From Thermanaerothrix sp. (GTDB taxonomy: Bacteria; Synergistota; Synergistia; Synergistales; Synergistaceae), in assembly GCA_026417795.1 (NCBI GenBank), contig JAOACP010000024.1, positions 1 through 32,773 on the forward strand: a DNA stretch of 32,773 nt, read 5' to 3'. The notes beneath the pieces are model-generated. The model ran no database searches, had not been told where the DNA came from, and worked only from the letters and a program-made list of their open reading frames with translations. Positions 1 to 32,553 of this stretch are shown here, piece by piece (position 1 is the first letter of the stretch; each line of letters opens with the position of its first letter). A program made the translations under genes and the position numbers.

Positions 1-1230
1 AAGGCCAGCAAGCAGGACGTGGAGATGCTGAAGAAGCTGGTGGTGGAGTTCAAGGACGAGCTGGACGCCCTGGGCGTGAAGGTTGACAAGCTCGACAGCC
101 GCGTGGCGGTTCTTGAGAAGGACCTTGGCGGCTGGAGCCTCTCCGGTGAGCTCCGCTTCGACGCCAAGTTCGCCGATGAGGACAGCACCAAGTATGGCTT
201 CGACGGCAAGAACGAGTTCAGCCTGAACAGGTATCGCCTGTGGATCAAGAAGCGGATCAACGAGACCACCACCTTCACCTCCCGTCTTGGCTACAAGCAC
301 GACAGCCAGGGCTACGACAGCGCTAAGTGGGACTACTACTACGTGACCACCAAGCTGCCCTACGATATCACCATGACCGTGGGTTCCCAGAACATCGACT
401 GGGAGGACGAGAGGGGCCTCTATGTGGACAACGAGGCCTTTGTGGGCGACTGGGATCTGAAGGGCTTCCGGTTCCAGAGGAGCTTCGGGATGGTGGACTT
501 CGACTCCTTCGTGGCCCACCAGGATGATGACACTGCCTCCGTGGACGAGTACTTCATGTATGGTGCCCGGATGGACTTCAACTTCAACGAGCAGTTCCGC
601 CTTGGGCTCATGGGGACGTGGTACAGCTATGATTACTCCGAGGCTTCCAGGACGGAGAACCACGGCGTTGACAACGTCTACGGCGCAGACATGGAGTTTA
701 AGTTCAACCCCTCCGTGTCCCTGAAGGGCGCTTACTACAAGCAGAACCTGTGGGAGAAGTCCGCTGTTACCCTTGCCAACGACAGCCCCAAGGCCTACAA
801 GGTGATCGTGGATGCCAAGCAGGATCTTCTGAAGTTCACCAGCCTGTGGCTCGAGTATGCCAAGATCGATGACGCTTTCTACATGACCGGCGACGGTGAT
901 TCCACTGCTTACAGCAATTACGGTGCCGAGGTGCTTAAGAACCGTGGTGCCAAGACCGGCAACGGGGAGACCTCCGTCTTCTTCGCCAGGGCTGATCAGA
1001 AGTGGAGCGACAAGTGGAGCACCTTCCAGCGCTACGTGTTGGCCGATTTCGACGGCACTGGCGTGGATGACACCAAGAACTACACCTTCGGCGTGGCCTA
1101 CAAGCTCAACCCGGCGGTGAAGTTCGAGCTTCTCTACGACAAGGTTGACTATGGTCAGAGCGACCCTGGGGCCAATAAGGAGACCGGTGACGATCACCTG
1201 ATCCGTCTGCGGACCCACGTGGTGTTCTAA
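1..1230 (+). CDS. SLH-type outer-membrane porin, 3' part (5' end outside the window)
   Basis: The frame is open from base 1 with no convincing start inside the window, so this is the C-terminal part of a larger protein. The first 40 or so residues form a heptad-like coiled coil (…LDALGVKVDKLDSRVAVLEKDL). The rest alternates aromatic and charged residues in strand-like stretches (LRFDAKF, YRLWIKK, FTSRLGYKH, FELLYDKVDY) and ends RLRTHVVF, with the terminal Phe typical of outer-membrane β-barrels. In Synergistota, Negativicutes and Deinococcus-Thermus, such proteins carry an N-terminal SLH domain that binds the cell wall, a coiled-coil spacer and a porin barrel. The SLH part would lie upstream and is not visible, so that assignment is inference. 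The likely role is a major outer-membrane pore and envelope tether. A strong terminator follows. The GTG at position 19 is an internal codon, not a start. Confidence 0.8.
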   Translation, partial: KASKQDVEMLKKLVVEFKDELDALGVKVDKLDSRVAVLEKDLGGWSLSGELRFDAKFADEDSTKYGFDGKNEFSLNRYRLWIKKRINETTTFTSRLGYKHDSQGYDSAKWDYYYVTTKLPYDITMTVGSQNIDWEDERGLYVDNEAFVGDWDLKGFRFQRSFGMVDFDSFVAHQDDDTASVDEYFMYGARMDFNFNEQFRLGLMGTWYSYDYSEASRTENHGVDNVYGADMEFKFNPSVSLKGAYYKQNLWEKSAVTLANDSPKAYKVIVDAKQDLLKFTSLWLEYAKIDDAFYMTGDGDSTAYSNYGAEVLKNRGAKTGNGETSVFFARADQKWSDKWSTFQRYVLADFDGTGVDDTKNYTFGVAYKLNPAVKFELLYDKVDYGQSDPGANKETGDDHLIRLRTHVVF

Positions 1231-16654: not shown

Positions 16655-17410
16655 ATGCGGTTGAAGACCCTTGGATTTGCGTTGTCGGCGGTTTTCCTCA
16701 TGGTCCTTTCCGTTGGGGCCCATGGCTCCCAGTTCACAGACGCCATGGCCCGGGGGAGCCGGTCGGTGAAGTACACGAACGACATGGGCAACAGCCTGGA
16801 GATAAGGGCCACCTACTACTCCGCCGAGTACGTGGAGGCCATGTTCCAGGCGGAGGCGGACAAGAACATGTGGACCAAGGACGAGCTGGAGAACTTCAAG
16901 TACACCTTCCTAAAGAACGTGCGCATAGGGGAGACCATACCCATAAGGCTGGAGTTCGAGAACCTGGGCCCCTCCATGAGGATGGCCCCCTTCGATGAGC
17001 AGGTGAGTCTCATGATAAACGGCAAGGAGTACAAGCCCGTGGAGTACGACCCTAGGTTCAACTTCAAGCTCCAGGGCAAGCGGGACGGCATGGTCTTCTT
17101 CCCCCGGTACGACGAGAAGACTCAGAAGGACCTCCTGAAGGGGGTCAAAAGCGTGCGGCTGCTCATCAAAGGCGGCATAAGCCCCATAACCGAGGGCAAG
17201 AAGATAGACTTCATCTGGGACGTGGACAAGGACAACCCCCAGCGGCTCTTCCAGGGCAAGGCGGCGGCCAAGCTGGAGGTGGATCGGCTCATAAAGAGGC
17301 TTGAGACGTTGTCCAAGGAGAAGCGCCAGCTGGAGGAGCGGCTTTCCGCGGTCAACGGGGAGATTGAGTCGGTCAACAAGAGGATGGACGAGCTGTCAAA
17401 GGAGCAGTGA
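16655..17410 (+). CDS. Exported protein with unnamed envelope domain and C-terminal coiled coil
   Basis: I do not recognise a named family. The 251-residue protein has a signal peptide (LKTLGFALSAVFLMVLSVGAHG, cleavage near residue 23). A β-rich domain (about 53-190) contains YYSAEY, IPIRLEF, INGKEYKP, YDPRF and GMVFFP. A C-terminal coiled coil (about 203-251) is rich in Lys, Glu and Leu. The central domain aligns without gaps, at an offset of 11 residues, to residues 66-161 of the exported protein encoded at 29028. ATG 16655 has GGGAGGAG eight bases upstream. The gene sits between NSS copy 1 and pfkA with its own promoter. It is likely periplasmic. The coiled coil could mediate oligomerisation. 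No enzyme motif or lipobox is visible. Confidence 0.75.
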   Translation: MRLKTLGFALSAVFLMVLSVGAHGSQFTDAMARGSRSVKYTNDMGNSLEIRATYYSAEYVEAMFQAEADKNMWTKDELENFKYTFLKNVRIGETIPIRLEFENLGPSMRMAPFDEQVSLMINGKEYKPVEYDPRFNFKLQGKRDGMVFFPRYDEKTQKDLLKGVKSVRLLIKGGISPITEGKKIDFIWDVDKDNPQRLFQGKAAAKLEVDRLIKRLETLSKEKRQLEERLSAVNGEIESVNKRMDELSKEQ

Positions 17411-21716: not shown

Positions 21717-21861
21717 CTTCGGTGTTCCTCCCTTTGTTTTTTTGTGGTATCTTGTTCTGCATGGATTTTCCCACCGGTAAGGCCTCTTCACCATGCACAA
21801 CCCCGCCCGTTACGGGGGCCCATCTGGCACGCCGGTCCATCCCATCCTTGGGAGGTACTCA

Positions 21862-22320
21862 ATGACAGACAGGATGAGAGATCTGATTTACAAGGTCCTC
21901 AGCGGTGACAGGAGCGTCCTGGCCCTTTACGCCGGGGCTTTCGTGCTCTTCCTGATGAGCCTTTGGGTCTTCGGAGCCGGTTCCTTCGTGGACCGGCTGG
22001 AGGTCTTCGACGCCGTTTCCTGCTCGGACCTCTCGGATTCCATGGAGCCCCAGGAGGTCTCGTCGGAGTTCCCGAAGGACGCAAGGCAGGTATGCGTGTT
22101 CTTCCGCTACAGGTCCCCAGGGGAGGAACAGGTGGTCATAATATGGTCCCACCGGGGAAGGGTCATCCAGAAGGAAACCCTGTCCCTCCACAAGGGGGAC
22201 GGGAAAAAGGCCTTCTACCTCCTGAGGGAGGACGGAAGCCCCTTGCCCAGCGGGGATTACGAGGTAAGCGTCATGTGGGGAATTCGCCGCCTTGGGTCCG
22301 TGAGGTTCCGGGTCCTGTGA
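21862..22320 (+). CDS. Small membrane-anchored protein of unknown function
   Basis: I do not recognise a family. The 152-residue protein has a short cytoplasmic N-terminus, one membrane segment (about residues 18-40: [23 protein letters not shown] broken by a few polar residues) and an extracytoplasmic domain. The domain runs [40 protein letters not shown] and [24 protein letters not shown], an Ig-like or β-sandwich pattern. ATG 21862 has GGGAGG eight bases upstream. The frame is open to 21793, without an SD. It is divergent from the ECF gene and upstream of transaldolase, with no obvious partner. Confidence 0.65.
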
Positions 22321-25840: not shown

Positions 25841-27478
<1,638 letters not shown>

Positions 27479-27535
27479 GTTAAGAGGTCTTCTAAAACTT
27501 GGATCAGCAGGATAAGACCTGTGGAGGTGATGAAA

Positions 27536-28555
27536 TTGTCAAGCCCATTTAAGTTGTCCCGCAAGGCCCTTTACCTTTTGCTGGCGGCCCTTTGCCTTGT
27601 GGCCCTGCCGGTTGCCGCCCTGGCGGACGGTACCGGAGAGGTGCCCACTGGGTTCACCCAGAGCCTTGAGAAGGTGGAGACAGTGCTTTACGGCGGTCCC
27701 CAGGCGGGCGGCCTTTTCGACCGGCTCGCCAGGGCCGAGAAGGACCTCTTCGGACGGGAGCTGCCCGGCAGCCTGGTGGAGAGGCAGAACGCCCTGGTGC
27801 AGTTCCTGGACCGGGGCACCCAGGGGCAGCCGGGGTTTCTCTTCAAGCTCTCGGTTGCGGAGTGGGCGCTGTTCAAGAAGGTAAGCCCCGAACGCTTCGC
27901 CGCCTCCAGGATAGAGTCCCTGGAGCAGGTTCTGGAGGGATCCATCCAACAGGGGCCCCTCTCCATGCGGCTTGAGCGGATGATCACCAAGCTGCTGCCC
28001 GGCGGAGTCCAGTCCACCCTTGTGACCGTGCCGGCGGGGCAGGTCTTCAAGGTCAACCTCCTGCAGCCCCTGTCCGCCCGTTACTCCAAGCCCGGGGACC
28101 GGGTTAAGATGGAGCTGGTGGAGGATCTTGCGCTGAACCAGGTGCTGGTGGCCCCCAAGGGCAGCCGGGTGATGGCCTCGGTGGAGAAGGTGGAGGGGCC
28201 TAAGACCTTTGGACGTCCCTCCAACGTTAAGCTCTCCTTCCAGCAGCTGGAGTCCCTGGGGTCCGAGGCGGTGCCGGTGGTCATGGGAGAGGCCTCCAGG
28301 AAGGCCACGGAGCTGGACAAGAGCCTGGTGGGCGCCGCGGGGGCCAGCGTGGCGGGCCTTGCCCTGTTCGGGCCTTTGGGGCTCGCTGGGGGCTTCCTGG
28401 TGAGGGGCGACGACAAGACCGTTCCCGCGGGAACCCAGTTCTACCTGGAGACCGCCGGGGAGGCTCAGGTGTTTGGGTACCCCATAGCAAAGGAGCTTTC
28501 TCCGTTGCTTAACGGGGGCGGCAATGTAAAAGGAACTGGAGGTGCTGGAAATTGA
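27536..28555 (+). CDS. Exported protein with VirB10-like β-barrel and glycine zipper
   Basis: No named family is certain. From TTG 27536, behind the SD GTGGAGGTGA, the protein has 339 residues. A signal peptide (LYLLLAALCLVALPVAALA) is followed by a helical region with repeats of DR and LFxR type. A β domain (about residues 165-300) starts VPAGQVFKVNLLQPLSARYSKPGDRV and resembles VirB10/TrbI-type barrels, in particular PAGxxxxVxLxxPxS. A Gly/Ala-rich zipper (VGAAGASVAGLALFGPLGLAGG) and a Gly-rich tail follow. It is first in a run of three unknown exported proteins before lptC/lptD, and its stop overlaps the next start by four bases (TTGA). A GTG at 27521 or ATG at 27530 are weaker start options. 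Confidence 0.65.
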   Translation: MSSPFKLSRKALYLLLAALCLVALPVAALADGTGEVPTGFTQSLEKVETVLYGGPQAGGLFDRLARAEKDLFGRELPGSLVERQNALVQFLDRGTQGQPGFLFKLSVAEWALFKKVSPERFAASRIESLEQVLEGSIQQGPLSMRLERMITKLLPGGVQSTLVTVPAGQVFKVNLLQPLSARYSKPGDRVKMELVEDLALNQVLVAPKGSRVMASVEKVEGPKTFGRPSNVKLSFQQLESLGSEAVPVVMGEASRKATELDKSLVGAAGASVAGLALFGPLGLAGGFLVRGDDKTVPAGTQFYLETAGEAQVFGYPIAKELSPLLNGGGNVKGTGGAGN

Positions 28556-28998
28556 AGGGTAAGAGCGCGGGAAAGAGGAGTTTAGCTAAGTGGGCGGTCT
28601 CTGTTGGGTTGGTACTGGCCTTGGGGATTCCCGCCTTCGCCATAGACTTAAGCAGCATAATAGGCGTGGTTGGCGGAGGTTTCCTGGTATCCGCTGTGGC
28701 GGAGCCCCTTAACAAGTTCATAAACACCATAACCTTCAATAAGGGATTGGAAAACCAGTCCTCCACCAAGGTGGTCCCCATAGTCTCCATAGGAGACGGC
28801 ACCAGGATAGGGGCCGCTCAGGTGTCGGGCCCCACCGGGGCGGTAAACAGGACCAAGGCGGTGGCCCAGCTTGAGACCAGCTTCCAGGACAAGCTTAGGG
28901 TGAAGGTGCTGATACCCATAGACTCGGAGAACCCCCTTCAGCAGTTCCGCCGAGTCCAAGGGGTAGGTGTGTCCGCCGTCATCGACCTGAGGCTTTAA
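28552..28998 (+). CDS. Small exported protein of unknown function
   Basis: I do not recognise this 148-residue protein. It has a signal peptide (WAVSVGLVLALGIPAFA) and a mature part of about 115 residues. That part includes a hydrophobic Gly-rich stretch (IIGVVGGGFLVSAVAEPL), a polar β segment (VVPIVSIGDGTRIGAAQVSGP) and VLIPIDSENP…GVGVSAVIDL at the end. TTG 28552 overlaps the preceding stop by four bases and has GGAGGTGCTG as SD. The tight coupling suggests equimolar production with the upstream VirB10-like protein and possible physical partnership. Confidence 0.65.
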   Translation: MKGKSAGKRSLAKWAVSVGLVLALGIPAFAIDLSSIIGVVGGGFLVSAVAEPLNKFINTITFNKGLENQSSTKVVPIVSIGDGTRIGAAQVSGPTGAVNRTKAVAQLETSFQDKLRVKVLIPIDSENPLQQFRRVQGVGVSAVIDLRL

Positions 28999-29027
28999 GG
29001 TTTGCCGGGAAGCGGAGGCGTGACGTC

Positions 29028-30233
29028 TTGGCGGTGAGTAAATCGCTCCGGCGGGCCCTTGAATTTTTGAGGGCTGCCGGAGCGGCCCTGTCCGTTCTGG
29101 CGGCATTGGCCTTTTCTGAAGGGGCTTCTTGCGCCGCCTCGCCGGAGGAGGCGGTGGCCCGGCATCTTGACCGCTGGAGCGCCATAAGGTGGGGAAGCGA
29201 CTGCGTGGTGTGGCTGGTCCACTACCCGGAGGAGATGGTCCCCGCCTGGGTTAAGCTGGAATCCAAGCGCAGGAGGTTTTCGCCGAAGGATGCCTCAGCC
29301 TACGAGAAGTCCTTTCGGGAACAGCTCCGCATGGCTACGTCAAGGCCCTTCCTTTTGACCGTTCAGGTCTTCGGCAGCCCCCTTAAGCTTGGGCCCATCA
29401 AGGAGAACCTGTCCATGAGGGCCAATGGGCGGGTTTTCAAGCCCTCCGCTTACGACCGCCGGCTGGACCAACCCATCTCGGGCCTCGTGCAGGGGCTGGT
29501 GTTCTTTCCCAAGGAGGCTACCCCCCCTTACAGGATCCAGTTGAAGGGGCTCCTGCCTTCGACGGTCACCGTGGACCTTCCCGCGGCCCCCGGGGCGGTG
29601 GACGTCGCGGCTCCTTCGCCTAAGCCCTTGGAGCCGTCCAGTAGATCCGCTGGGCCCCCTAAGGGACGCCAAAAGGATGAGGTGGGAAAGGCTGAGGTTA
29701 AGGCCCAAGGGGCTCAACTGGCCGAAAGGCCCAAGGCTGAGACCCCGTCGGTCCCGCCAAAGCCCAAGAAGGGCGAGGTTAAGCCTACCCCGGAGCCGAA
29801 GATCCCGAGAGCCCCTGGTACGGAACCGGAGCCGCCCAAGGCTGTCAAGGCGGCGGAGCAACCCAATGTATCCCAGGACGTGCCGGAGCAGCCGAAGGTT
29901 CAGGCCCCTAAGAAGGAGGAGACACAGAAGGATGACCGAAGGGCCCGGGAGGAGGCCATAAGGGCCTTCCTTGACGCCTGGCGGCGGGATGACCTGGAGG
30001 CGGCCTGGGGGATGATGTCCTCAAGAAGCCGTTCCCAGGGCAAGGAACAGCTGATCTCCCGTCTTGGCTCCCATTCCTTCCGGTGGGCCCTGAAGGAGGG
30101 GTACAAGGTTTCCCTGGAGGGTGACGCCGCAAGGGTTTCCGCCACCCAGAGGTTCCTCATGGTGAAGATGATGAAGACCGAGACCTTCCGCTTGGTGGAG
30201 GAAGGGGGGCGCTACAGGGTTGACTGGCAATAA
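29028..30233 (+). CDS. Exported protein: unnamed domain shared with the protein at 16655, Pro-rich linker and NTF2-like end
   Basis: This is a three-part exported protein of 401 residues. A signal peptide or membrane anchor (about 12-36) precedes domain A (about 55-184), which carries PEEMVPAW, RPFLLTVQ, ANGRVFKP, YDRRL and GLVFFP. It matches the protein at 16655 without gaps over residues 66-161. A Pro/Lys/Glu-rich linker (about 185-305) follows. The last 95 residues (AIRAFLDAWRRDDLEAAWGMM, then VSATQRFLMVKMMKTETFRLVEEGGRYRVDW) look like an NTF2-like or DUF4878-type fold. The start is TTG 29028, nine bases after GGAGG. The stop overlaps the start listed for lptC. The envelope operon suggests a role with LPS export or outer-membrane assembly. 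Confidence 0.75.
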   Translation: MAVSKSLRRALEFLRAAGAALSVLAALAFSEGASCAASPEEAVARHLDRWSAIRWGSDCVVWLVHYPEEMVPAWVKLESKRRRFSPKDASAYEKSFREQLRMATSRPFLLTVQVFGSPLKLGPIKENLSMRANGRVFKPSAYDRRLDQPISGLVQGLVFFPKEATPPYRIQLKGLLPSTVTVDLPAAPGAVDVAAPSPKPLEPSSRSAGPPKGRQKDEVGKAEVKAQGAQLAERPKAETPSVPPKPKKGEVKPTPEPKIPRAPGTEPEPPKAVKAAEQPNVSQDVPEQPKVQAPKKEETQKDDRRAREEAIRAFLDAWRRDDLEAAWGMMSSRSRSQGKEQLISRLGSHSFRWALKEGYKVSLEGDAARVSATQRFLMVKMMKTETFRLVEEGGRYRVDWQ

Positions 30234-30768
30234 GAGGAGGCTTGCGTTGTGGGGCGTGGGCCTGGCGGGGCTTTTGACCTTTCTATTCTACATGGCAAGG
30301 GATCTTAACCTCCAAAGGCAGGAACCCCCTAAGGGCCTTAAGGCCCTTCCGGACGTGGAGGCGGAGGACCTGTCGCTGGTGCGGACCGTCAACGGCGAGG
30401 AGTGGAGGATAACCGCAAAGGGGGCGGCCAAGGCCTGTAGCACCGTCAAGGCCCGGGGGTTGTGGGTCCAGAAGGGCCCCGAGGGGGCTCCTACGGGGAA
30501 GCTTCAAGCGGCGGAGGGTTTTTACGACGAGGATCTAAGTTCCATGGAGCTTAAGAGTTTCAGGGGGCTTTGGACCGTTGGGGGGCGGCCCTATCAGTTC
30601 TCCGGGGACCGGGGGATCTACAGCTTCCAAAAGGATATTTGGAGTTTCAGCGGAGGCGTTGAGATACGTCAAGACCGCATGTCCGCCAGGTCAGACAGCG
30701 GCAAAGTGGAGGGCGGCCGTAAGGTGCTCCTTGAGGGGAACGTAGAGGTTCTCATGGAGGTGAGGTAG
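30220..30768 (+). CDS. lptC: LptC-like LPS export protein
   Basis: LptC is an inner-membrane-anchored periplasmic protein that passes LPS from the LptBFG transporter to LptA. This 182-residue protein has a short N-terminus (NKRRLALWG), one membrane segment (about 9-25) and a β-jellyroll-like domain with repeated strand patterns (AEDLSLVRTVNGEEWRITAKGA, FYDEDLSSMELKSFRGLW, RGIYSFQKDIWSFSGGVEI). I list TTG 30220, because it keeps KRR on the cytoplasmic side. A second TTG at 30247 has the better SD (AAGAGGAGG) but would lose these charges. It is directly followed by the lptD-like gene, and no separate lptA is visible. Confidence 0.75.
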   Translation: MTGNKRRLALWGVGLAGLLTFLFYMARDLNLQRQEPPKGLKALPDVEAEDLSLVRTVNGEEWRITAKGAAKACSTVKARGLWVQKGPEGAPTGKLQAAEGFYDEDLSSMELKSFRGLWTVGGRPYQFSGDRGIYSFQKDIWSFSGGVEIRQDRMSARSDSGKVEGGRKVLLEGNVEVLMEVR

Positions 30769-32553
30769 TTGTTCCACCGGCTTTCAAATCCCCTTAAGGG
30801 GCGTAAAGTGTTTAAGGGCCCGCTCCTCTTGGGATGCGTCCTGTTCCTGTTGGCTTCGATCTTTGGGGCGAGCTCCTCCCTTGGGGCTTCTCAGGATCTT
30901 AAGGAAGTTCAGGAGGCCAGGCTCACGGCGGACCAGGTGGTCTATGAGGAGGACACCGGGGTGGCCTCCGCCTTCGGAAGGGCCAGGCTGGTCCACGGGG
31001 ATCTAAGGCTCTTCGCGGAGAACATCGTATACGACACCCAGGCCAACCGGGTGGAGGCTTGGTCCCCGGGGGGAGAGGTGACGGTGCTCTCCAAAGGCCG
31101 GCGGTTGAACGGCCTTCGCCTGGTCTACAGTTTGGATGACCGGTCCGGAGTCCTCTCCTCCGCCCACGGGGAGGACCAAGGGGTCTTCATAAGGGGCAGC
31201 GACCTGGAATTCATGCCCCTTGAGGAGGCGATATCCAGGGGGCTTGTCTCCAGAAAGGCGGCCCTTGAGGTCAAGGGCAAGAAAACAAACAACGCCAAAG
31301 ACGCGGCGGTGTGGAGGGACGTCTCCGCCACCACCTGCGAGCTTCCAAGCCCCCACTACCTGCTAAAGTCCAAGCAGGTGGTGGTGGCCCCCGGAAGGTC
31401 CACGGTGATAAGGAAGCCCCAGGTGTATTTGGGGGGGCGGCTCCTTTTCAACTACCCCTTCGATTACGTGGTGAAAGACAAAAAGGACAAAAAGGAGCAG
31501 CAGGACTCCTTCGTCCCCTTCGTCAAGTACGATTCCTCCAAGGGGGTGGGGGTGGGCATATCCGGGCCCCTGGAGGAGGAGGGGTTGGACGTATCCATGG
31601 GGCTTATCGGTTGGACCAAGGTTGACCCCGAGGGCTGGGTGGAGGCCAATTACCGGCTTTCGGATTGGGCGTCGGTCTTCGGCCGGGTGGACCGGGTGTA
31701 CGACACCACCATGGAGGAGATGCTTTGGCGTCCCAAGTGGGGAGCTAGGTGGACCATGGGAGATGTCTCGGGTTCGGCCCTCTGGTCCCAGCGGGAGCTC
31801 CTGAAGGTGGAGAAGACCCTGGGGCGCAGCGAGAGCTACTTCCTCTATCGGGAGCCCGAGATCTCCCTGTACGGCCCCTGGGCCAAAGCGGGTGAGGGCG
31901 GCCTCACGTGGCGGCTTGGGGTCCTGTACGGCCGATACGAGGAGAGCCGCAAGGACTTCGAGAGGAAGTCCATTTCCGGAGAGCTGGCGTGGTCCGGCCT
32001 TTTGGGCTCCCTAAGGCCAAGGTTCTACCTTTCCCACCTGTATCACTCCTACGGCGGCGGTGATCACCAGGGTACCACCTATGGGGAGGTGGGGGTGGAT
32101 TGGCGGCTCGGCGAGTTTGACATGTCCACGGTCTACGCCAGGCGCTGGGTGTCCGGATCCTCCCCCATGGAGTGGGACCGGTACTCCGAGGCGGAGAACC
32201 TCTATCAAACCACTTCTTTCTACCTTGGGGATCCCAAGGGGGACTACAACTGGCGGATCTCCGTGCAGGCGGGCTACGACCTGAAGGCCTCGTCGCTGGC
32301 CAGGATGGTGTACACGGTGTCCTATAAGCACCACTGCCTCATATGGGACCTGGTGATGAGGGACAACCGTTCCGACGGGGACAGGTGGTTCGGGTTCAAC
32401 CTGAGGCTCAAGGACGCTCCCCCGAGGACCTTTGAGGACAGCGGCTACTATGAGCCCATGGTGCAGCGGTTCGACGAGATCTACAACGCTTCTTCCCCGG
32501 CGTCCTCGGATCTCAAGGAGGATGAGGCCCCAGAGGGCGGCGTTGACCGGTGA
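30769..32553 (+). CDS. lptD: LptD-like LPS assembly protein (OstA/Imp family)
   Basis: LptD receives LPS and inserts it into the outer membrane. The 594-residue protein has a signal peptide (about 18-38), an OstA/LptA-like N-terminal domain (about 45-170: ARLTADQVVYEEDTG, FAENIVYD, AEDQ-type repeats) and the family block ATTCELPSPHYLLKSKQVVVAP, after which YLGGRLLFNYPFDY begins the barrel. It is shorter than E. coli LptD (about 780), suggesting fewer or shorter loops. A hydrophilic tail of about 45 residues follows the last predicted strand. TTG 30769 has GGAGGTGAGG upstream and starts right after the lptC stop. Only one conserved Cys region is evident, so the E. coli disulfide pattern may be absent. 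Confidence 0.85.
   Translation: MFHRLSNPLKGRKVFKGPLLLGCVLFLLASIFGASSSLGASQDLKEVQEARLTADQVVYEEDTGVASAFGRARLVHGDLRLFAENIVYDTQANRVEAWSPGGEVTVLSKGRRLNGLRLVYSLDDRSGVLSSAHGEDQGVFIRGSDLEFMPLEEAISRGLVSRKAALEVKGKKTNNAKDAAVWRDVSATTCELPSPHYLLKSKQVVVAPGRSTVIRKPQVYLGGRLLFNYPFDYVVKDKKDKKEQQDSFVPFVKYDSSKGVGVGISGPLEEEGLDVSMGLIGWTKVDPEGWVEANYRLSDWASVFGRVDRVYDTTMEEMLWRPKWGARWTMGDVSGSALWSQRELLKVEKTLGRSESYFLYREPEISLYGPWAKAGEGGLTWRLGVLYGRYEESRKDFERKSISGELAWSGLLGSLRPRFYLSHLYHSYGGGDHQGTTYGEVGVDWRLGEFDMSTVYARRWVSGSSPMEWDRYSEAENLYQTTSFYLGDPKGDYNWRISVQAGYDLKASSLARMVYTVSYKHHCLIWDLVMRDNRSDGDRWFGFNLRLKDAPPRTFEDSGYYEPMVQRFDEIYNASSPASSDLKEDEAPEGGVDR

What the first reader, a model, noticed from the sequence alone, without database searches (positions are those of the whole stretch)
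27536..32553. Three unknown exported proteins directly upstream of lptC/lptD
A run of overlapping genes encodes a VirB10-like/glycine-zipper protein, a small exported protein, the shared-domain protein and then LptC-like and LptD-like proteins. Four-base overlaps (TTGA) and strong SDs point to one transcript. The position suggests accessory factors for LPS export or outer-membrane anchoring in a lineage whose system is not well described.
Basis: partly seen in the sequence, partly recalled or inferred. Interest (0 to 1): 0.6.

Follow-up and report, generated by a model that had tools for sequence, protein, structure and literature searches.

The report
VirB10-like protein locked to lptC–lptD
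In essentially every member of the bacterial phylum Synergistota, an unstudied exported protein that resembles a piece of the type IV secretion pore is encoded directly in front of the genes thought to carry lipid to the outer membrane, which makes it a candidate for a missing part of that machine in these bacteria.

Summary
Window 27536-32553 carries five co-directional genes: A (339 aa), B (148), C (401), an LptC-like and an LptD-like protein. A, B and C have signal peptides and no family above any curated cut-off. Gene order was read in 61 Synergistota loci from 11 families. lptC follows A on the same strand in 56 of 56 loci with enough sequence, lptD in 55. A is found in 114 of 116 good genomes, nearly always single copy. 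C is often present, B facultative; where both are missing, A abuts lptC (7-86 nt). In four loci without pyrG upstream, A-lptC-lptD remains.

An AlphaFold model of A shows a helical repeat domain, then a beta domain whose 13 best PDB matches are all VirB10/CagY outer-membrane domains. An uncharged, glycine-rich hydrophobic insert sits where, from general knowledge, VirB10 places its outer-membrane helices. Sequence evidence for that kinship is weak. The Pfam LptE model finds nothing above cut-off in 188 genomes.

Best reading: A is a core accessory of an LptE-less Lpt bridge, probably inserted in the outer membrane beside LptD; C is a frequent partner. Function is inferred; unrelated pyrG is also usually syntenic, so linkage alone is not proof.

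The parts
27523..27527 (+). Shine-Dalgarno GGAGG for gene A, 8 nt before TTG 27536
   Evidence: sequence
27536..28555 (+). gene A: exported VirB10-like protein, 339 aa; core and nearly always single copy in Synergistota
27536..27625 (+). A signal peptide (aa 1-30, LPVAALA|DG)
   Evidence: sequence; cleavage site inferred
27662..27994 (+). A helical repeat domain (aa 43-153); E-x4-G-x9/10-R unit at aa 48, 68, 130
28007..28483 (+). A beta domain (aa 158-316), fold like the VirB10/CagY C-terminal domain
28331..28414 (+). A glycine-rich uncharged hydrophobic insert (aa 266-293), at the place of the VirB10 outer-membrane helices; low confidence in the model
28552..28998 (+). gene B: small exported protein, 148 aa, 65% mean column identity in 20 sequences; facultative in this operon
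29028..30233 (+). gene C: exported protein, 401 aa: N-terminal shared (weakly DUF4352-like) domain, Pro-rich linker, C-terminal NTF2-like (MecA_N-like) domain
29106..29567 (+). C N-terminal shared domain (approximate bounds)
29934..30230 (+). C NTF2-like domain (approximate bounds; PF05223 in 16 of 22 family members)
30220..30768 (+). lptC-like gene, N-terminal membrane anchor (NKRRLALWGVGLAGLLTFLFYMARDL); TTG 30247 is an alternative start
30769..32553 (+). lptD-like gene: LptA/LptD N-terminal domain plus presumed beta-barrel
31336..31338 (+). LptD invariant Cys190 codon (20/20 sequences)
32335..32337 (+). LptD invariant Cys523 codon (20/20 sequences); candidate long-range disulfide partner of Cys190
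25877..27478 (+). pyrG, usual upstream neighbour (49 of 55 loci), not thought part of the function

Best explanation
A, with C as a frequent partner, is an accessory of a lineage-specific Lpt bridge that lacks LptE. Proposed working: A is exported and its signal peptide removed; its beta domain assembles like a VirB10 C-terminal domain at the inner face of the outer membrane; the glycine-rich hydrophobic segment inserts into that membrane; and the helical repeat domain reaches into the periplasm towards the LptC/LptD jellyroll bridge or the wall. There it helps LptD fold, be placed or be held. Shown here: gene linkage and order, phylum-wide presence, repeat architecture, VirB10-like fold of the model, chemistry of the insert, no LptE by the Pfam model. 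Inferred: oligomeric state, membrane insertion, contact with LptD or LptC, and any effect on glycolipid export.
For: A in 173/188 genomes, 114/116 good ones, one copy with two exceptions. Of 15 genomes without A, 11 also lack a detectable LptD; in the other four LptD lies by a contig end, consistent with assembly gaps. lptC directly downstream on the same strand in 56/56 loci, lptD 55/56; in L074, L077, L085 and L086, without pyrG upstream, the A-lptC-lptD run is kept; in 11 loci without B and C, A abuts lptC by 7-86 nt. AF2 model pLDDT 76, pTM 0.73; the 13 best of 350,542 PDB chains are all VirB10/CagY (probability 0.92-1.00; next unrelated hit 0.08). Insert aa 263-288 uncharged in 30/34 sequences, with invariant G and P. 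LptE model: 0/188 over cut-off, while controls ring. LptF/G present once in the genome. Diderm Terrabacteria are reported to lack outer-membrane lipoproteins such as LptE (PMC11784454).
Against: No direct evidence of interaction, localisation or phenotype. pyrG, rho and M23 are also syntenic, so conserved order does not equal shared function. Sequence kinship to true VirB10 is weak (hhalign E 0.0017, probability 15%); Foldseek E only 1.5e-3; the insert is the least confident part of the model (pLDDT about 40). An absent Pfam hit does not exclude a diverged LptE. No multimer prediction could be run.
Confidence: 0.45

Rival explanations
1. A (with C) is an envelope-structure factor: an outer-membrane-inserted ring or plug that ties the outer membrane to the wall, not tied to lipid export; it sits near lptCD because the whole run (M23/LysM peptidase, A, C, lptC, lptD, a following gene of about 315 aa that looks like ddl) is an envelope-assembly locus.
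For: LysM/M23 peptidase gene upstream in nearly all loci; helical repeat domain of A of unknown target; Pro-rich linker and NTF2-like domain of C, the latter resembling the N-domain of wall-synthesis enzymes such as MecA.
Against: The strictest linkage of A is to lptC/lptD, not to the wall genes; no known peptidoglycan-binding domain (LysM, SPOR, OmpA-like, SLH) found in A, B or C.
Confidence: 0.25
2. Hitch-hiking: the order is frozen by operon inertia around essential genes in this phylum, and A, B, C act elsewhere in the envelope.
For: pyrG, functionally unrelated, precedes A in 49/55 loci; rho and M23 are also conserved; B leaves the locus freely and is then found among amino-acid metabolism and IclR-regulator genes.
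Against: A-lptC-lptD survives where pyrG linkage is lost (4 loci) and where B and C are lost (11 loci).
Confidence: 0.25
3. A is a component of a real type IV secretion system.
For: VirB10-like fold, TrbI weakly in 3/34 members.
Against: The Pfam TrbI model finds genuine VirB10 in only 36/188 genomes, at other loci, and none in the window's own genome, while A is in nearly all; no other VirB gene among the conserved neighbours; A has a signal peptide instead of VirB10's inner-membrane anchor.
Confidence: 0.03

Closest known systems
VirB10/TrbI family (C-terminal domain, T4SS outer-membrane core complex; PDB 3jqo, 7o3j, 8rt6, CagY 6odi)
   Same: Predicted fold of A's beta domain; hydrophobic insert between strands at the place of the outer-membrane helices; colinear motif around PAGxV, LVAPxGSRV and FG.
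   Different: Sequence below Pfam cut-off; signal peptide rather than inner-membrane anchor; glycine-rich insert; new helical repeat domain; no other T4SS genes; linked to lptC/lptD.
LptE (LptD partner lipoprotein)
   Same: Position in the pathway proposed for A: partner of LptD.
   Different: No sequence or fold likeness; A is not a lipoprotein; LptE itself not found above cut-off in the phylum.
LptC (PF06835, TIGR04409) and LptD (PF03968 N-domain)
   Same: Fourth and fifth genes match these at family level; two invariant Cys in LptD recall the long-range disulfides of E. coli LptD (from general knowledge).
   Different: Divergent; window copies below curated cut-offs; short LptD (594 aa).
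MecA_N / NTF2-like and DUF4352 domains
   Same: C-terminal and, weakly, N-terminal domain of protein C.
   Different: Joined by a long Pro-rich linker in an exported protein without a transpeptidase domain.

Membership tests
VirB10/TrbI | Match to PF03743 above its cut-off | tested here: not met
   Weak TrbI matches in 3/34 A-family members, best E 5e-4; none in the own genome even at E 0.1
VirB10/TrbI | VirB10 C-terminal beta-domain fold | tested here: met
   Top 13 PDB hits all VirB10/CagY, probability 0.92-1.00, but E about 1.5e-3
VirB10/TrbI | Membrane-inserting segment between strands at the outer membrane | tested here: inconclusive
   Uncharged Gly-rich segment aa 266-293 in the equivalent place; insertion not shown, model confidence low there
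VirB10/TrbI | N-terminal inner-membrane anchor | tested here: not met
   Signal peptide with a likely cleavage site read from sequence; not assayed
Type IV secretion system | Other VirB genes next to the VirB10-like gene | tested here: not met
   Conserved neighbours are rho, M23, pyrG, lptC, lptD
LptE | PF04390 match, outer-membrane lipoprotein | tested here: not met
   A, B, C: no match, no conserved lipobox; 0/188 genomes over cut-off
LptC | PF06835/TIGR04409 match and N-terminal membrane anchor | tested here: met
   TIGR04409 E 4e-7 but below cut-off; PF06835 in 8/20 family members, best 1e-6
LptD | LptA-like N-terminal jellyroll domain | tested here: met
   PF03968 in 7/20 members; profile hits PDB LptA 7e-10 and LptD 4e-5
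LptD | 26-strand beta-barrel | not tested
Lpt accessory factor | Physical or genetic interaction with Lpt proteins | not testable with these tools
   Only linkage and co-occurrence

The most novel reading that the evidence does not exclude
Synergistota use a VirB10-type outer-membrane ring protein in place of LptE: A forms an oligomer inserted in the outer membrane beside or around LptD, an Lpt translocon of a kind not yet described.
Probability: 0.15. Interest if true: 0.88.

Novelty: new variant of a known kind. Interest (0 to 1): 0.6.

Why it matters
How diderm Terrabacteria complete lipid transport at the outer membrane without lipoproteins such as LptE is an open question (PMC11784454), and earlier surveys found no LptD/LptE in diderm Firmicutes (PMC5007114) or set Synergistetes aside (PMC8871954). 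A conserved, single-copy, exported protein encoded against lptC/lptD in essentially the whole phylum is a concrete, testable candidate for a missing part, and would extend the VirB10 fold from secretion to outer-membrane biogenesis.

Tried and rejected
T4SS membership of A: rejected. LptE identity of A, B or C: no match. Sequence search of A, A's beta domain, B and C profiles against the PDB: nothing significant. Structure of B: poor model (pLDDT 54, first 67 residues below 50), and its Foldseek hits are at noise level, so I draw nothing from them. PHROGs for A, B, C and plasmids for A: nothing. NCBIfam for B: scattered chance-level hits. hhalign of A against genuine VirB10 from Synergistota: colinear but weak. 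Promoter/terminator scan: uninformative. Relatives outside the phylum: the single genome-contig scan, with short exact peptide patterns, found only seven loci, all Synergistota, so absence elsewhere is not established. Papers: no report of this gene set found in the held library, which lacks most subscription journals.

Full report
What is there. The window (G000:C24, a Synergistota genome) ends with pyrG, then five co-directional genes: A 27536-28555, B 28552-28998, C 29028-30233, lptC-like 30220-30768 and lptD-like 30769-32553. Only the A/B junction is a 4-base TTGA overlap. A, B and C carry signal-peptide-like starts. Pfam and NCBIfam name none of them above cut-off.

Identity of the two Lpt genes. 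The fourth protein matches LptC TIGR04409 (E 4e-7, below cut-off) and 8 of 20 family members match PF06835. The fifth is LptD-like: PF03968 in 7 of 20 members, and the family profile hits PDB LptA (7e-10) and LptD (4e-5). It has exactly two invariant cysteines, 190 and 523, in 20 of 20 sequences, which recalls the long-range disulfides of E. coli LptD (general knowledge). The barrel was not modelled. LptF/G is encoded once, elsewhere in the genome. The LptE model finds nothing above cut-off in 188 Synergistota genomes, while it rings in E. coli, Caulobacter and Bacteroides controls.

Linkage. A is present in 173 of 188 Synergistota genomes, 114 of 116 good ones, single copy with two exceptions: a split gene in G039 and two loci in G103. 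The 15 without A are mostly fragmentary: 11 also lack a detectable LptD, and in the other four LptD is at or near a contig end. I read gene order in 61 loci, one per genome and mostly one per genus, from 11 families including the divergent family f11. Of 56 with at least 4.5 kb downstream, lptC follows A on the same strand in 56 and lptD in 55. B and C are both present in 16, C alone in 23, B alone in 6, neither in 11; in the last group A precedes lptC by 7-86 nt. pyrG precedes A closely in 49 of 55; in L074, L077, L085 and L086 no pyrG was detected upstream but A-lptC-lptD is kept. So A is the constant element. The caveat is plain: pyrG, rho and an M23 peptidase gene are also conserved in this run without any evident link to lipid export.

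B and C. C has a full-length relative in roughly 125 genomes and its N-terminal domain recurs in a second protein family (window 16655-17410) found in most genomes. C's C-terminal domain is NTF2-like (PF05223 MecA_N in 16 of 22 members), its N-terminal domain weakly DUF4352-like, joined by a Pro-rich linker. B is the most conserved in sequence (65% mean column identity) but is present in only 93 of 188 genomes; in a good part of these it lies elsewhere, beside amino-acid metabolism or IclR-regulator genes. Its tie to Lpt is therefore loose. Its structure could not be predicted well.

What A looks like. Foldseek against 350,542 PDB chains ranks VirB10/CagY outer-membrane-complex domains in the first 13 places (probability 0.92-1.00, E 1.5e-3 to 6e-3); the next hit has probability 0.08. 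Sequence support is weak: TrbI in 3 of 34 members, hhalign with genuine VirB10 of Synergistota E 0.0017 and probability 15%, colinear over 71 columns. Genuine VirB10 proteins occur in 36 of 188 genomes at other loci and not in this genome, so A is not a T4SS part. The insert (aa 263-288) is uncharged in 30 of 34 sequences, mean hydropathy 1.2 over 263-293, with invariant Gly and Pro, and lies where VirB10 carries its outer-membrane-spanning helices (general knowledge of VirB10). The model is least confident exactly there.

Mechanism. I think A most likely inserts into or sits at the outer membrane and supports the Lpt bridge in a lineage without LptE, with C as a frequent periplasmic partner. 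That A touches LptD or LptC, that it forms a ring, and that it affects lipid export are inferences. Rivals are an envelope-anchoring role and plain operon hitch-hiking.

Comparison with known work. Diderm Terrabacteria are described as having Lpt homologues but no outer-membrane lipoproteins (PMC11784454). LptD/LptE were not found in Negativicutes and Halanaerobiales (PMC5007114). A survey of outer-membrane genes left Synergistetes out of its tree (PMC8871954). I found no description of this gene set in the held library, which is incomplete.

Verdict. A real, phylum-wide, uncharacterised gene association with a testable hypothesis. New variant of a known kind: a VirB10-like fold in a new architecture and context.

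Noticed in passing
window 16655-17410: Exported 251-aa protein sharing the N-terminal domain of C, followed by a coiled-coil-like tail; relatives in most Synergistota genomes, often far from the lpt locus.
   Followed up: partly
window 31336-31338 and 32335-32337: Two invariant cysteines (190 and 523) in the LptD-like family, kept in 20 of 20 sequences of this phylum, suggesting a conserved long-range disulfide.
   Followed up: partly
window 19-1230: Coiled coil followed by a beta-barrel-like sequence at the contig start, resembling an OmpM-type outer-membrane tether whose N-terminal part is cut off; no Pfam hit.
   Followed up: no
L104:7998-8426, L105:7998-8492, L106-L123: Unlinked copies of B beside amino-acid metabolism or IclR-type regulator genes; reason for the move unknown.
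   Followed up: partly
L083 (G105): LptD-like gene not detected after lptC; a 444-aa ORF stands in its place, possibly a diverged LptD.
   Followed up: no
L070 (G047), L071 (G086): Extra ORF(s) between C and lptC (one 281-aa ORF in L070).
   Followed up: no
window 21793-22320: Uncharacterised 175-aa protein with an N-terminal membrane segment upstream of the transaldolase gene; relatives in 11 of the fetched loci.
   Followed up: no
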